Shown here: piece after piece, positions 29,235-46,825 of the stretch | Layout of the letters: each line of letters starts with the position of its first letter | Position numbering within the stretch: the first letter of the stretch is position 1 | DNA from: Vicinamibacteraceae bacterium | GTDB taxonomy: Bacteria; Acidobacteriota; Vicinamibacteria; Marinacidobacterales; Marinacidobacteraceae | Reading direction: 5' to 3' | Assembly (NCBI GenBank): GCA_012271265.1 | Contig: JAAXGQ010000104.1 | Location: 1 to 47,257, forward strand | DNA length: 47,257 nt | Notes under the pieces: model-generated | The model's database searches: none | What the model saw: only the letters and a program-made list of their open reading frames with translations | What the model was told of the DNA's origin: nothing | Made by a program: the position numbers and the translations under genes

Positions 29235-29975
29235 TGCGGCGCAGGCCGGCGAGGACGCCGGCGCTCCATGCAGCCGACGCTCCATGCGTCGGGGCGCGCC
29301 AGGCCTGGAGCGCCGGTGTCCTCACCGGCCACGGTCCATCGGGACGGCGGCGCGGTCGGCAGGAGACTGCCTGAGGGGCCGACGGTGCGGCGCAGGCCGG
29401 CGAGGACGCCGGCGCTCCATAGGGCCGGCGCTCCATAGGGCCGGCGCTCCATGGGCCCCGCGCTTCATACGTCGGGGTGCGCCAGGCCTGGAGCGCCGGT
29501 GTCCTCACCGGCCACTGCCTGTCGGCACGGCGACGCGGTCGGCAGGAGACTGCCTGAGGGGCCGACGGTGCGGCGCAGGCCGGCGAGGACGCCGGCGCTC
29601 CATAGGGCCGGCGCTCCATGGGCCCCGCGCTTCATACGTCGGGGCGCGCCAGGCCTGGAGCGCCGGTGTCCTCACCGGCCACGGTCCATCGGCACGGCGG
29701 CGCGGTCGGCAGGAGACTGCCTGAGGGGCCGACGGTGCGGCGCAGGCCGGCGAGGACGCCGGCGCTCCATAGGGCCGGCGCTTCATGGGGCCGGCGCTTC
29801 ATGGGGCCGGCGCCGCTTCATACGTCGGGGCGCGCCAGGCCTGGAGCGCCGGTGTCCTCACCGGCCACGGTTCATCGGCACAGCGGCGCGGTCGGCAGGA
29901 GACTGCCTGAGGGGCCGACGTGCGGCGCAGGCCGGCGAGGACGCCGGCGCTCCATGGGGCCGGCGCTCCATGGCG
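29235..29975. repeat. Composite tandem array of palindromic elements, unit about 152-185 bp
   Basis: GCGGCGCAGGCCGGCGAGGACGCCGGCGCTCCAT at 29235, 29387, 29570, 29737 and 29922, alternating with GAGCGCCGGTGTCCTCACCGGCC variants. Confidence 0.92.
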
Positions 29976-31104: not shown

Positions 31105-32232
31105 GTGACGGAAACCGACTCCATCCTCCGGGCGCCCCCCGGAGCCGTCACGCTGCGGGGGGACGAAGTGCGCCGCCGCCGCCGCGTCGAGGCCGGCGCC
31201 GCCGAGGTCTTCGCCGGCTGGGGCTACGAGGAGATCCTGCTGCCGCTGTTCGACCACGCCTATGTCTTCGCCCGCGGGGGAGGACGGTGGTCGGAACGGT
31301 CGAGCTACCGCTTCACCGAGGGCGGAGACCTCCTCGCTCTCCGCGCCGACTTCACCGCGCTGGCGGCGCGGGCGGCGTCGGTCCTGCTGCCGGCGGGCCT
31401 GGACCGCCTCTCCTACCGGGGAGAGGTCGTCCGCCGCCCGGCGCGGAGCCTCGGCCCCGCGGCGTCGCGCGAGGTGGGGCTGGAACACTTCCGCGCCGGG
31501 GTCGGGGCCGACCTGGAGGTCCTGCTCGTCGCGCTGGAAGTGCTCGAACGGCTGGACATCGGCGGCTTCGTCTTCACGCTCGGGCACGCCGGATTCCCGT
31601 TGGGCCTCCTCGACGACGCCCTCGCCGGAAATCCCGAAGGCGGCGACTGTGAGCGGCGGCGGGCCGAGACCCTGCGGGGGCTCTGGCGGCGGGACCGGGG
31701 CCGGATTCGGGCCGCCCTCGGGGACGCCGCCCCCGCGGTGACCGCCGCCCTCGACTTGACCGGAGGACCGGAGGCGCTCGAAGCGGCCGCGGCGCTCGAG
31801 CTGCCGGCGCGGGCCCGACAGGCCGTCGAACGGCTCCAGGAACTCGCCGCGCTCCTCGACGGGCTGGGGCTCGCCGACCGCTTCCGCTTCGACCTCGCCG
31901 AGCTGCGCGGCTTCGACTACTACACCGGGCTCATCTTCGAGATCCATGCGCCCGGCGCCGGCTCCGAGATCGGCGGCGGAGGCCGCTACGACGACCTTCT
32001 CGCCCGGTTCGGGGACGCTCGCCCGGCCGTGGGCTTTTCACTCTCGGTCGACCGCATCGCTCCCCTGCTCCCCGCCGCCCCGCACCCGCCAGCAAGCGCC
32101 AGCCTGTCGGCAGGAGACGGCCCGAGGGACCGAAGGCGCCGCCGAGGCCGGCGAGGAGCCCCCACCGGGAGAACTGGCCGGCGCTCCATGGGGCTTCTCG
32201 CCGAGCGTTTTCGGGCCATGCGCCTCGACTGA
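31105..32232 (+). CDS. hisZ: ATP phosphoribosyltransferase regulatory subunit HisZ with a repeat-derived C-terminal segment
   Basis: HisRS-like fold: FDYYTGLIFEIHAPG, EIGGGGRYDDLLARFG; adjacent short-form hisG. Confidence 0.85.
   Translation: MTETDSILRAPPGAVTLRGDEVRRRRRVEAGAAEVFAGWGYEEILLPLFDHAYVFARGGGRWSERSSYRFTEGGDLLALRADFTALAARAASVLLPAGLDRLSYRGEVVRRPARSLGPAASREVGLEHFRAGVGADLEVLLVALEVLERLDIGGFVFTLGHAGFPLGLLDDALAGNPEGGDCERRRAETLRGLWRRDRGRIRAALGDAAPAVTAALDLTGGPEALEAAAALELPARARQAVERLQELAALLDGLGLADRFRFDLAELRGFDYYTGLIFEIHAPGAGSEIGGGGRYDDLLARFGDARPAVGFSLSVDRIAPLLPAAPHPPASASLSAGDGPRDRRRRRGRRGAPTGRTGRRSMGLLAERFRAMRLD
32106..32193. repeat. Palindromic element copy inside hisZ coding sequence
   Basis: GTCGGCAGGAGAC...CCGAGGGACCGAAGG...GAGGCCGGCGAGGA-(20 nt)-CCGGCGCTCCATGGGG matches the modules in the 29 kb array; the reading frame stays open. 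Confidence 0.8.
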
Positions 32233-36113: not shown

Positions 36114-36838
36114 GCGGCGGGCGAGAGGCGGAGACCGGCCCGCTCGCGGAGTTCCCCCCGGCACCCGCTCCGAGCGAGCGGGAACCGGTGGCAGCCGGGC
36201 GCGTCCGGGGGGATTCTCCCGTCGTCACCGTCGTCGATCACGGCGCCGGAAACCTCGCGAGCGTCGTCCGGGCGCTCGGGCGCGAAGGCGCGGCCGCGCG
36301 GCTCTCCCGCGACCCGGAGGAGGTCGCGGCGGCCACGCGGCTCGTGCTCCCCGGCGACGGGCACTTCGGGGAAGCCATGCGGGGTCTGCGGCGGCGCAAC
36401 CTCGAAGCGCCGCTCTCGCGGGCGATCGAAAGGGGCGCCAGCCTTCTCGGGATCTGCGTCGGGCTCCAGATGCTCTTTCCGGAGAGCGAGGAAGCCCCGG
36501 AGGTTCCAGGCCTCGGCCTCCTGCCCGGGCGTGTGCGCCGTTTCGGCCCGGGGCTGGTCGTCCCGCACATCGGCTGGAACCAGCTCGAGGCAATTGCGCC
36601 CGGCCTCCTCTTCGAGGGCATTCCGGAAGGCGGTTACGCCTACTTCCTCCACTCGTTCTTCGTGGCGCCGGCGCGGACGAGGGACTGGCTGACGCGCACG
36701 GACTACGGGATCCCGTTCGCTTCGGCGGCCGGCGCCGGGAGGATCGCCGGGATCCAGTTCCACCCGGAGAAGAGCGGACGACTCGGCGCGCGGGTGCTGC
36801 GGAACTACCTGAGCTGGGCGGGAGGCAACGGGAGATGA
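36110..36838 (+). CDS. hisH: imidazole glycerol phosphate synthase, glutamine amidotransferase subunit
   Basis: DHGAGNLASVVRAL, LLGICVGLQMLF, GIQFHPEKSGRLGARVLRNYL; about 35 aa N-terminal extension in the annotated frame. Confidence 0.93.
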   Translation: MSGGREAETGPLAEFPPAPAPSEREPVAAGRVRGDSPVVTVVDHGAGNLASVVRALGREGAAARLSRDPEEVAAATRLVLPGDGHFGEAMRGLRRRNLEAPLSRAIERGASLLGICVGLQMLFPESEEAPEVPGLGLLPGRVRRFGPGLVVPHIGWNQLEAIAPGLLFEGIPEGGYAYFLHSFFVAPARTRDWLTRTDYGIPFASAAGAGRIAGIQFHPEKSGRLGARVLRNYLSWAGGNGR

Positions 36839-37683
36839 ACGACGCGGCCCGAGCGCCCATCCTGCCGATTCCGGCGATCGATCTCTCCGGAGGCCGCGTG
36901 GTGCGGCTCTTCCGCGGCGAGCGGGATCGGGAGACGGCGTACCCGGTTCGTCCGGTCGCGATGGCCGAGGAATTCGCTGCCGCCGGGGCTGCCTGGCTCC
37001 ACGTGGTGGACCTCGACGGGGCGTTCGGCGACGGCGGCAACCGGGACACCGTCGGGGAGCTCCTGGCTGCGGCGCCGCTGGCGGTGCAGGTGGCCGGAGG
37101 GGTGCGCACGGTGCGGGAATACGCCCGGCTGCGCGAGGCCGGCGCCGCCCGGGTGGTCTTCGGCACGATCGCCGTCGAGGCGCCCGAAGTCGTGGAGGAA
37201 GCCATCCGCCTCGACCCGGACGGCGTCGCGGTGGCGCTCGACGTGAAGGGCGGCCGGCTGGCCACGCGAGGGTGGGTCGAGACCGCCGCCGGCCCGGCGT
37301 GGGCTTCGTCCGCCCCCGCCGCGGCGCGCCGGTGGGGCAGGCGCGGCGCCGCGGCAGTGATCTACACCCGCGTCGAGAAGGACGGCACCCTCGAAGGCCC
37401 GGACGAAGCCGGAGCTCTCAAAGTGGCGAGAGCCGCCGGAGTCCCCACCATCCTCGCCGGGGGGGTGGGGTCCCTCGACCACCTCCGCGCGCTCGCCGCC
37501 TCGGAGGCCGTTCCGCGCCTGAGCGGCGTCATCCTTGGCCGCTCGCTCTACGACCGGCGGTTCACCTTCGCCGAAGCCCTCGCCACCCTTGCGGGGCAGG
37601 CCGGCGGGGACGCCGGCGCTTCAAGGGGCCGGCGCGCCATGGGTTCTGGTTGTCGGCGTGGGCCACGTGGATCGCGCCGTTGA
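36835..37683 (+). CDS. hisA: phosphoribosylformimino-5-aminoimidazole carboxamide ribotide isomerase HisA with repeat-encoded C-terminus
   Basis: IPAIDLSGGRVVRLFRGE, WLHVVDLDGAFGD, VQVAGGVRTV, GVILGRSLYDRRFTFAEAL. Confidence 0.92.
   Translation: MNDAARAPILPIPAIDLSGGRVVRLFRGERDRETAYPVRPVAMAEEFAAAGAAWLHVVDLDGAFGDGGNRDTVGELLAAAPLAVQVAGGVRTVREYARLREAGAARVVFGTIAVEAPEVVEEAIRLDPDGVAVALDVKGGRLATRGWVETAAGPAWASSAPAAARRWGRRGAAAVIYTRVEKDGTLEGPDEAGALKVARAAGVPTILAGGVGSLDHLRALAASEAVPRLSGVILGRSLYDRRFTFAEALATLAGQAGGDAGASRGRRAMGSGCRRGPRGSRR
37591..37643. repeat. Palindromic element copy overlapping the hisA 3' end
   Basis: GCAGGCCGGCGGGGACGCCGGCGCTTCAAGGGGCCGGCGCGCCATGGG. Confidence 0.85.
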
Positions 37684-44178: not shown

Positions 44179-46404
44179 ATGCGACCAGGCGATCGGAAGG
44201 TTCCCGGACCCGGGCGCCGGCCGCGGCCGTTCCTTGTCCTCGCCGCCGCGTCCTTCCTCGGCGTGTTCGCGCTCGCGGCGGCGGCCGAAGTCCCGGCCGA
44301 ACGCGTGGTGGTGCTGGGGTTCGACGGGGCCGATCCGGACGAGATCACCGCGATGATCGCGGAAGGGGAGCTTCCGAACCTCGCCCGGCTGGGCGCGGAG
44401 GGGACCCTGGCGCCGCTCGGCACCACCCGGCCTTCCGAGTCGCCGGTCGCCTGGGCGACGTTCGCTACCGGGATGAACCCGGGCCGCACCGGCATCTTCG
44501 ACTTCCTGGAGAAGGGCGAGGCCGGCTACACGCCGCAGATCGCGCTGGTCCGGGAGGGGACCCGGCGTATCTCCCCGGCGCTTCGCTGGTCCCTCCTGTT
44601 GCTCGTCATCGCGGTCATGGGCTGGTTGACACGGGTCGCTGCCGCTCGCTGGCTCCCCGAAGTGAAGGTTGCCGGCGGGGTCCCTTCCCGTCGGGTCATC
44701 AACCCGTACTGGTTTGTGGGAACGGTGGTGGTTCTCACCGGTTTCGCGGGTCACATGGTGTTGCAATGGATTCCGGAGGAGTTGCCGCAGGCAATCCGCG
44801 CGCGGCAGGGAGATTCGTTCTGGAAGATCGCCGGCGGGGCCGGGGTCCCGACGGTGGCGCTCCAGGCGCCGATGGACTTCCCGGTGGAGGAATCCCCGGG
44901 GGCCCGCGTTCTCGCCGGCTTCGGGGTTCCGGACGTGCGGAAGTCGTTCGGCCTCTGGTCCATCTACTCGACGGACCTGATCGAGGAGGAGTCCACGGAG
45001 ACCGGCGGCACCCGCTATCCGCTCCGCTTCGAGAACGGGATCGCGGCCAGCGTGGTCCGCGGGCCCCGCGACTTCACCGCGGCGACGGACGAGGCGGATC
45101 AGCCGGAAGTCGGGATTCCGGTGCTGTTCCGCAAGAGCGGCGAGCGGCTCGAAATCGAGACCGCCGGGCGGAGCTTCCATCTCGCCGTCGGCGAGTGGTC
45201 CGCCATGGTCCCCATCACCTTCACCCTGAACCCGCTGGTGCGCCTTTCCGGCTTGCTGCGCTTCCGGCTGCTGTCCCTCGAACCGAACGTCGAGGTGTTC
45301 ATGGAGCCGGTGAACTTCGATCCGGAGCGGCTGCCGCCCATCGTGGACCTCTCCTGGCCGCGCGACTTCGCCGGCGATATGGCGCGGCACGCCGGCCCCT
45401 TCGAGACGATCGGCTGGAAGATCATCACCAATCCGCTGCGGGACGGGGTCGTGGACTTCGACGCCTTTCTCGAGGACGCCCGCTTCGCCCGGGAATCGAA
45501 CGAGCGCCTGCTGCGGGAAGCCGTCCGGGCGGATGACTGGCGCCTGCTCGTCGCGGTCTTCCTCTTCCCGGACCGCATCCAGCACATGCTCTACCGGTTC
45601 GCCGATCCCGAACACCCGAACCACGATGCCGAACTCGCCGTTCTCTACGGCGACGAAATCCGCCAGACCTACCGCGAGATGGACCGCATCGTGGGGGAGA
45701 CGGTCGCGGCCGCGCCGCCGGGGACGCGGTTCATCGTGCTCTCCGACCACGGCTTCCACTCGTTCCGCTATCAGTTCAACGTGAACACCTGGCTGGCCGA
45801 GCACGGCTATCTGCGGTCCTCCGGGGGCGGAGGCGAGCGGCGGCTGGAGGACCTGTTCGACCCCCACGCGGTGTTTTTCCCGGGCGTGGACTGGGGTCGC
45901 AGCGAAGCGTTCGCTCTCGGCCTCTCCGGGATCTACTTCAACCAGGAGGGACGGGAACCGCAGGGGATCGTGGCGCCTGGCGCCGAACGCGAGGCGCTGG
46001 CGGAACGGCTGATCGCCGACCTGCTCGCGTATCGCGATCCGGAGAACGGGCAGCAGGTCGTGCGGGTCGTCCACCGAAGGGAAGACATCTACGAAGGCGA
46101 GTTCGTGGACGAGGCGCCGGACCTCATCCTGGGTCTGGAGCCCGGCTACCGGATCGGCTGGCAGAGCACCCTCGGCGGGTTCCCCGAGGCGGCGGTCACC
46201 CCGAACCTGGACAACTGGAGCGGCGACCACTGTTCCATGGAGGACACCGACGGCGTCCTCATCGCGAACTTCGATCTCGAAGGTCCGGCGAACCTGCGGG
46301 ACATGGCCCCCACGATCCTCCAACTCCTCGGTGTGGGGGTTCCGTCGGACATGGACGGGGCGTCCCTGGTGCCGGGCGCGCCCGACCCGGAGCTGGGGGA
46401 ATAA
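44179..46404 (+). CDS. alkaline phosphatase / type I phosphodiesterase family protein
   Basis: VVVLGFDGADPDEITAMIAEGELPNLARLGAEGTLAPLGTTRPSESPVAWATFATGMNPGRTGIFDF ... FIVLSDHGFHSF. Confidence 0.88.
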   Translation: MRPGDRKVPGPGRRPRPFLVLAAASFLGVFALAAAAEVPAERVVVLGFDGADPDEITAMIAEGELPNLARLGAEGTLAPLGTTRPSESPVAWATFATGMNPGRTGIFDFLEKGEAGYTPQIALVREGTRRISPALRWSLLLLVIAVMGWLTRVAAARWLPEVKVAGGVPSRRVINPYWFVGTVVVLTGFAGHMVLQWIPEELPQAIRARQGDSFWKIAGGAGVPTVALQAPMDFPVEESPGARVLAGFGVPDVRKSFGLWSIYSTDLIEEESTETGGTRYPLRFENGIAASVVRGPRDFTAATDEADQPEVGIPVLFRKSGERLEIETAGRSFHLAVGEWSAMVPITFTLNPLVRLSGLLRFRLLSLEPNVEVFMEPVNFDPERLPPIVDLSWPRDFAGDMARHAGPFETIGWKIITNPLRDGVVDFDAFLEDARFARESNERLLREAVRADDWRLLVAVFLFPDRIQHMLYRFADPEHPNHDAELAVLYGDEIRQTYREMDRIVGETVAAAPPGTRFIVLSDHGFHSFRYQFNVNTWLAEHGYLRSSGGGGERRLEDLFDPHAVFFPGVDWGRSEAFALGLSGIYFNQEGREPQGIVAPGAEREALAERLIADLLAYRDPENGQQVVRVVHRREDIYEGEFVDEAPDLILGLEPGYRIGWQSTLGGFPEAAVTPNLDNWSGDHCSMEDTDGVLIANFDLEGPANLRDMAPTILQLLGVGVPSDMDGASLVPGAPDPELGE

Positions 46405-46494
46405 CGGGTCCGAGCTGGGGAAATAGCGGCGCGCGAGCTGGGGGAATAACGGCCCGAGCTGGGGGAATAACGGTCCGCGAGCTGGGGGAATGTG
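46390..46494. repeat. Short tandem repeat GAGCTGGGGGAATAACGGTCC(GC), 5 copies, 21-23 bp spacing
   Basis: Copies start at 46390, 46412, 46435, 46456 and 46479; first copy contains the stop codon of the upstream CDS. Confidence 0.92.
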
Positions 46495-46547
46495 AGCTTG
46501 CCCCGTTTTCGTGGACGGTTCTTCGTTTGGGATCAGCGCTGATCCCG

Positions 46548-46655
46548 GCAGTGGCCGGTGAGGACACCGGCGCTCCAGGTGGCAGTGGCCGCGGCCCCTC
46601 GCAGTCTCGCGCCGAACCCTGGCCCCATGGAGCGCCGGCGTCCTCGCCGGCCTGT
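46548..46655. repeat. Two divergently oriented palindromic elements (GTG/CAC-stem and GCG/CGC-stem variants)
   Basis: GTGGCCGGTGAGGACACCGGCGCTCCAG near 46550 and ATGGAGCGCCGGCGTCCTCGCCGGCC near 46626. Confidence 0.85.
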
Positions 46656-46717
46656 TCTTCCCCCGGCTCCGGTGAGGGCGCGCGGCGGTGGCGCCGCTCG
46701 AACCGCCATCCGCTACG

Positions 46718-46825
46718 GAGCCGGGGAAACAGCGGGTCCGAGCTGGGGGAATAGCGGGTCCGAGCTGGGGGAATAAGCTGGGGAAATAACGCCGGAGCTG
46801 GGGAAACAGGCTGGGGGAATAGGAG
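46718..46825. repeat. Second cluster of GAGCTGGGG(G/A)AATA(A/G) repeats, 5-6 degenerate copies
   Basis: Copies near 46718, 46740, 46762, 46776, 46795 and 46809. Confidence 0.85.

What the first reader, a model, noticed from the sequence alone, without database searches (positions are those of the whole stretch)
32106..32193. Palindromic element inserted in frame near the end of hisZ
After the conserved HisZ fold (GGGGRYDDLLARFG...FSLSVDRIAPLL) the frame runs through sequence homologous to the intergenic arrays (GTCGGCAGGAGAC...GAGGCCGGCGAGGA...CCGGCGCTCCATGGGG), encoding SAGDGPRDRRRRRGRRGAPTGRTGRRSMG before LLAERFRAMRLD. The reading frame survives, as described for Rickettsia palindromic elements in proteins. 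About 20 nt separate the two arms here, so this copy is rearranged.
Basis: partly seen in the sequence, partly recalled or inferred. Interest (0 to 1): 0.7.

Follow-up and report, generated by a model that had tools for sequence, protein, structure and literature searches.

The report
REP repeat inserted inside hisZ gene
A piece of one of this bacterium's own very abundant short repeats (about 1,400 copies, probably spread by a single-copy transposase) has landed in the tail of a histidine-biosynthesis gene and is still read through in frame, an event of a known kind that happened in at least two other genes of the same genome.

Summary
hisZ (31105-32232, +) carries at 32106-32193 a piece of a dispersed repeat with 1,437 core copies in the 3.4-Mb Acidobacteriota MAG, and the frame stays open into a conserved C-terminal helix. 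Relatives in the same family have no such segment in HisZ. The repeat is best read as a REP/REPIN: a foot (GGAG) plus hairpin, paired as inverted doublets about 64 nt apart and arrayed in tandem. The only Y1/HUH REP transposase (RAYT) found in this genome lies inside an array of the same repeats. The hisZ copy is the 3' half of a REPIN: half a spacer plus the right REP. The "20 nt between the arms" is not a local rearrangement. A family-specific 20-mer replaces 2 nt; the same variant occurs at five other places in this genome and the 20-mer in all nine relatives. The HisZ insertion is not demonstrably precise, because the native linker diverged and the tail is shortened. Two other genes (a ResIII helicase, a DUF5916 protein) carry the same repeat in frame; the helicase case is a clean 62-aa insert. 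Inferred, not shown: RAYT mobility, translation, near-neutrality. It works like Rickettsia RPEs but belongs with REP/REPIN-RAYT: a new member of a known kind. The nested 20-mer is the oddest part.

The parts
31105..32232 (+). hisZ (ATP phosphoribosyltransferase regulatory subunit), 375 aa, carrying the repeat-derived segment
   Evidence: PF13393 and TIGR00443; 69-73% identical to HisZ of same-family genomes
32106..32193 (+). REPIN-derived insert, residues S335-G363 (positions 50-113 of the 113-nt consensus REPIN plus ATGGGG)
32106..32145 (+). Second part of the REPIN spacer (GTCGGCAGGAGAC...)
   Evidence: the 52-nt match beginning here is 88% identical to a genomic REPIN; upstream 32057-32105 does not match the left half of the REPIN above chance
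32146..32187 (-). Right (inverted) REP, GGCCGGCGAGGA...CCGGCGCTCC, interrupted by the 20-mer
32158..32177 (+). Nested 20-mer GCCCCCACCGGGAGAACTGG in place of the dinucleotide CG
32194..32232 (+). Native hisZ resumes: LLAERFRAMRLD*, matching GLAERFRAAR of relatives; relatives continue ~17 aa further
   Evidence: modelled as a helix, residues 359-374
29257..29973 (+). Tandem REPIN array (unit 167-186 nt) upstream of the ThiF/MoeB-like gene; source-type repeats
37599..37622 (+). REP overlapping the 3' end of hisA (36835-37683) and encoding its divergent C-terminus

Best explanation
The segment is a 5'-truncated REPIN: half of the spacer plus the right REP, already carrying a 20-nt nested block. 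It came from the genome's own REP/REPIN family and entered the flexible linker between the HisZ core and its C-terminal helix, in the lineage of this genus. The repeats were most likely spread by the resident RAYT acting on single-stranded hairpins. The hisZ copy probably survives because the linker tolerates it, the repeat is stop-free at 71% GC and the frame was kept, not because the Arg-rich peptide has a job. Shown: repeat homology, REPIN architecture, RAYT within the repeats, open frame, absence in relatives, parallel in-frame insertions elsewhere. Inferred: RAYT-driven movement, the 5' truncation, translation, near-neutrality.
For: 103 matches in the own genome. 1,437 core copies against 0 for the reversed pattern. 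Inverted doublets peaking at 64-65 nt apart, with a 113-nt consensus that folds at z -7.6. One RAYT (NF047646 above cutoff; PDB 4er8 TnpA-REP E=7e-6) embedded in the same array in G000, and tag repeats facing inward in several relatives' RAYT loci. HisZ of eight same-family relatives lacks the segment, and seven of them keep the downstream LAERFRAAR helix. AlphaFold gives pLDDT about 31-37 over residues 329-360, then a helix. Parallel in-frame inserts: ResIII helicase, a clean 62-aa insert between well-conserved flanks; DUF5916 protein, with an uninterrupted neighbouring paralogue.
Against: No genome of the same genus was found, so the exact empty site of hisZ is not available. The net length gain (~19 aa) is less than the 29 aa of repeat, so something was also lost or the linker drifted. 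RAYT mobility was not tested, and other routes (recombination, gene conversion) could place a truncated repeat. The genome is a MAG, 88% complete.
Confidence: 0.87

Rival explanations
1. The insert is kept by selection: the Arg-rich peptide has a role in HisZ, for example in binding HisG or RNA.
For: The segment is open and positively charged, and the genome-wide rarity of intragenic copies shows that most insertions are not tolerated.
Against: It is predicted disordered and absent from all relatives examined. The same peptide type appears in unrelated proteins, as expected of a passenger repeat.
Confidence: 0.06
2. hisZ is decaying: the insertion plus loss of the last ~17 residues made it a pseudogene.
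For: The tail beyond LAERFRAMR is missing and the gap to hisG is 6 nt, against a longer gap in most relatives.
Against: The core is intact at about 70% identity, the frame is open, the his genes around it are intact, and a short HisG normally needs HisZ (established knowledge).
Confidence: 0.06
3. Assembly artefact: contigs joined at a repeat.
For: Other contigs of this MAG carry repeats at their ends, and hisZ holds a repeat.
Against: Native hisZ resumes in frame after the insert and runs into hisG, the same order as in most relatives. Collapsed repeats would not give this.
Confidence: 0.03
4. Chance: a GC-rich linker that resembles the repeat.
For: 71.6% GC and an Arg/Gly/Pro-rich peptide.
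Against: Score 104 against a shuffle maximum of 55 and at most 46 elsewhere in the his operon; E about 1e-13 to 1e-15; 20-mer variant identity.
Confidence: 0.01

Closest known systems
REP/REPIN (BIME) elements with RAYT/TnpA-REP (Bertels & Rainey 2011, PMC3116915; PMC6006769)
   Same: Short hairpins with a 5' foot, inverted doublets, tandem REPIN clusters, hundreds of copies, a single RAYT within or beside the same repeats
   Different: The foot is GGAG/GGAA, not GT[AG]G or CGTC; copy number (about 1,437 cores in 3.4 Mb) is very high; many copies lie in long arrays; a family-specific 20-mer interrupts some hairpins
Intragenic, REP-decorated proteins (Di Nocera 2013, PMC3733652)
   Same: REPs or REP dimers inside ORFs, mostly encoding 20-30 extra residues, a minority at the ends of coding regions
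   Different: Here in an uncultured Acidobacteriota family, in hisZ, a ResIII helicase and a DUF5916 protein; the hisZ copy is a truncated dimer
Rickettsia palindromic elements, RPE (Ogata 2000; described in PMC2229807 and PMC3733652)
   Same: A dispersed repeat read in frame in conserved genes, extra residues in tolerant places
   Different: Unrelated sequence, host and length class; here a RAYT is present and only a few intragenic copies were found
Small dispersed repeats, SDR, of Nostoc (Elhai 2008; citation seen in PMC3116915, content from memory)
   Same: The nested 20-mer is in the same size class (20 nt against 21-27 nt), sits inside other repeats and is confined to one clade
   Different: Different sequence and phylum; here it usually replaces about 2 nt inside REP-like hairpins

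Membership tests
REP/REPIN associated with a RAYT | Short palindrome able to form a hairpin with an unpaired foot | tested here: met
   GGAGC + 7-bp stem/4-nt loop, z -2.9; the hisZ copy itself has lost it
REP/REPIN associated with a RAYT | Inverted doublets at a preferred spacing | tested here: met
   135 FR pairs, peaks at 64-65 and 102-104 nt; 113-nt consensus folds at z -7.6
REP/REPIN associated with a RAYT | High copy number, mostly extragenic | tested here: met
   1,437 cores; 3 internal in-frame insertions recognised among 229 clusters in 1.33 Mb
REP/REPIN associated with a RAYT | RAYT gene flanked by the same repeats | tested here: met
   C268 RAYT inside the array; inward-facing tags clear in 3 and partial in 2 of 7 relatives' loci, none in 2
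GTAG or CGTC REP super-family | GTAG or CGTC tag at one end | tested here: not met
   The foot is GGAG in G000 and GGA[AG] in relatives
REP/REPIN associated with a RAYT | Movement catalysed by the RAYT | not testable with these tools
   Needs cleavage or excision assays
Rickettsia RPE | Rickettsia-specific sequence family of 105-146 bp | tested here: not met
   Acidobacteriota host by the titles of the closest relatives; 113-nt REPIN with GGAG foot; RPE definition from PMC2229807
Rickettsia RPE | In-frame location inside conserved protein genes | tested here: met
   hisZ, helicase, DUF5916 protein: resemblance, not membership
HisZ | HisZ profile and neighbouring short HisG | tested here: met
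   PF13393 7e-59; TIGR00443 best hit at 200.6 bits, below its 271.65 cutoff; hisG of 214 aa
SDR-like nested 20-mer | Very short (about 20-27 nt) dispersed repeat embedded in other repeats, confined to one clade | tested here: met
   10/10 family genomes, 0/50 others; occupied/empty orthologous pair
SDR-like nested 20-mer | Moves as a unit of its own | tested here: inconclusive
   Presence/absence with about 2 nt exchanged; gene conversion between repeats is not excluded

The most novel reading that the evidence does not exclude
The 20-mer NCCCCCACCGGGAGRACTGG inside the hisZ REP is itself a minimal mobile element: it enters hairpins of many unrelated palindromes in this Acidobacteriota family, swaps about 2 nt for 20 (net +18, frame-neutral in hisZ), and may use the RAYT's single-strand chemistry.
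Probability: 0.3. Interest if true: 0.65.

Novelty: new member of a known kind. Interest (0 to 1): 0.4.

Why it matters
It extends REP-decorated proteins to an uncultured Acidobacteriota family with about 1,400 REP copies, and shows with occupied/empty comparisons that conserved genes absorb REPINs in frame. The intact versus interrupted paralogues and homologues make the cost of such inserts directly testable. The nested 20-mer, if mobile, would be among the smallest mobile sequences known.

Tried and rejected
Upstream 32057-32105 as the degenerate left half of the REPIN: no better than shuffles. Rfam on the whole window: no match. The survey's other ORF hits (e.g. aminotransferase, transporter and ABC-permease-like ORFs at 5 mismatches) look like native sequence resembling the core, not inserts. 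20-mer copies examined for coding context: none passed in the ten loci tested. One search's '42 of 42 empty sites' is an artefact of matching occupied copies to themselves; one search returned nothing; one search is the valid run. The 20-mer locus shared by G001 and G004 turned out to be carried in a larger insertion. Literature on REPs in sponge-type Acidobacteria: nothing useful.

Full report
Observation. Window 31105-32232 (+) is hisZ. It is preceded by a ThiF/MoeB-like gene and followed by a short-form hisG (214 aa) and hisD; translations further on look like hisC, hisB, hisH and hisA, with hisI and hisF on the other strand (hisA by PF00977). The segment 32106-32193 (residues S335-G363) is homologous to a dispersed repeat. 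It has 103 matches at E<=0.001 in the own genome G000, including four array copies at 29355-29973. Against the repeat consensus it scores 104; shuffles average 34 with a maximum of 55, and other windows in the his operon reach at most 46. The finding is real and not chance.

What the repeat is. The 24-nt core GGCCGGCGAGGACGCCGGCGCTCC (<=3 mismatches) occurs 1,437 times in 3.4 Mb; the reversed control pattern occurs 0 times. Read on the other strand it is GGAGC followed by a hairpin (7-bp stem, 4-nt loop; z -2.9). In the sequence fetched, neighbouring copies form inverted doublets with spacing peaks at 64-65 and 102-104 nt. The commonest is a 113-nt unit that folds at z -7.6. The window's arrays are tandem copies of such units. 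This is REP/REPIN architecture as described for Pseudomonas (PMC3116915).

The transposase. G000 has one Y1/HUH match. Its ORF reaches the NCBIfam REP-associated tyrosine transposase model above cutoff, and its best PDB match is TnpA-REP 4er8. It lies inside an array of the same repeats. Of seven relatives' RAYT loci examined, three show GGA[AG]CGCCGG tags clearly facing the gene from both sides, two show a partial pattern and two show none. The foot is not GTAG or CGTC, so the family does not fit either tagged super-family of PMC3733652. PMC6006769 reports atypical feet in some classes, including class 3, which is found in Acidobacteria; the RAYT here has NHVH and YIRRNP motifs, closer to class 2 as tabulated there.

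The hisZ copy. It starts at position 50 of the REPIN consensus (32106): half a spacer, then the right REP, then ATGGGG. The left REP is missing and the sequence upstream does not resemble it above chance. Inside the right REP, GCCCCCACCGGGAGAACTGG stands where CG is expected. This is not a rearrangement of this copy: five other places in G000 have the same 42-nt variant, and the core 20-mer occurs in 10 of 10 genomes of the family and 0 of 50 others. With the 20-mer the hairpin is not stable, so this copy is palindromic by descent only.

Relatives' HisZ. Seven relatives of one genus read ILP-(22 aa)-LAERFRAARAARASG..VRF, with no Arg-rich segment. G002, of a third genus, has another linker, without repeat. 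Order- and class-level relatives also lack it. The window has ~41 aa in the linker, 29 of them repeat-derived, then LLAERFRAMRLD and a stop. The downstream helix is therefore kept in frame, but ~10 aa of linker and ~17 aa of tail are missing or diverged, so a precise insertion cannot be claimed for hisZ. AlphaFold (12 sequences, mean pLDDT 73) leaves residues 329-360 disordered and ends in a helix at 359-374.

Is hisZ alone? A codon-usage and ORF survey of 1.33 Mb (39% of G000) held 845 repeat hits in 229 clusters. Three conserved genes carry the repeat internally and in frame. A ResIII helicase on C245 has a clean 62-aa insert between flanks that align without gaps to three relatives (62-77% identity). 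A DUF5916 protein on C195 has ~41 extra residues, absent from the neighbouring paralogue and seven relatives. hisZ is the third. hisA ends in a repeat-encoded tail, and a helicase at the end of contig C268 may do so too. In the three internal cases the right REP is read in the same frame (GRRG...RRSMG); in hisA it is read in another frame. Most clusters are outside recognisable genes, so most gene insertions appear to be eliminated (inference; the survey is a heuristic and would miss out-of-frame copies).

Mechanism. Most likely a REPIN fragment entered the linker and was kept because it is stop-free, in frame and in a disordered place. The RAYT as the mover is inferred from architecture and from the known activity of TnpA-REP (PMC6006769). 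REPs and REP dimers inside ORFs, mostly encoding 20-30 aa, are known (PMC3733652), and Rickettsia RPEs are the classic in-frame case. The finding is a new member of that kind: it works like an RPE but is not one.

The nested 20-mer. At many sites in the family, comparison with sequences lacking it shows about 2 nt exchanged for 20 (19 of 39 best matches; others 0 to 5 or -1). Only some of those matches are orthologous; most are other copies of the same repeat. One orthologous pair, G001:C17 against G007:C195, is occupied versus empty. In about a third of 31 sites it sits 3-5 nt to one side of a hairpin apex. It resembles the small dispersed repeats of Nostoc (Elhai 2008; cited in PMC3116915; details from memory). 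Movement of its own is not proven.

Noticed in passing
32158-32177; L225 ~318-337 versus L226; all family-f1 genomes: A 20-nt block NCCCCCACCGGGAGRACTGG, confined to one Acidobacteriota family, sits inside many different palindromes and usually replaces about 2 nt; one orthologous occupied/empty pair was found.
   Followed up: partly
L233 3108-4295 (G000:C268): The genome's only detected RAYT (Y1/HUH REP transposase) lies inside an array of the repeats; every same-family genome searched has one or two.
   Followed up: partly
L108 3887-6985 (G000:C245): ResIII-type helicase with a clean 62-aa in-frame REPIN insert absent from three relatives.
   Followed up: yes
L103 2707-5073, with paralogue at 140-2272 (G000:C195): DUF5916 protein with ~41 repeat-encoded residues; the adjacent paralogue has none.
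   Followed up: yes
37599-37683: The hisA C-terminus is encoded by a REP between the convergent hisA and hisI genes.
   Followed up: partly
L188-L195: HisA homologues of most relatives show a stop inside the aligned region because the query's repeat-encoded tail is aligned past their real stop; apparently not a recoded codon.
   Followed up: partly
L222 (G002:C50): In G002 the hisZ frame runs without a stop into a sequence resembling a branched-chain aminotransferase, where other family members have hisG: a possible fusion or frame error.
   Followed up: no
46386-46775: A different tandem repeat (GAGCTGGGGGAATAACGGGCCC, 22-44 nt units) near the end of the window, unrelated to the REPs.
   Followed up: no
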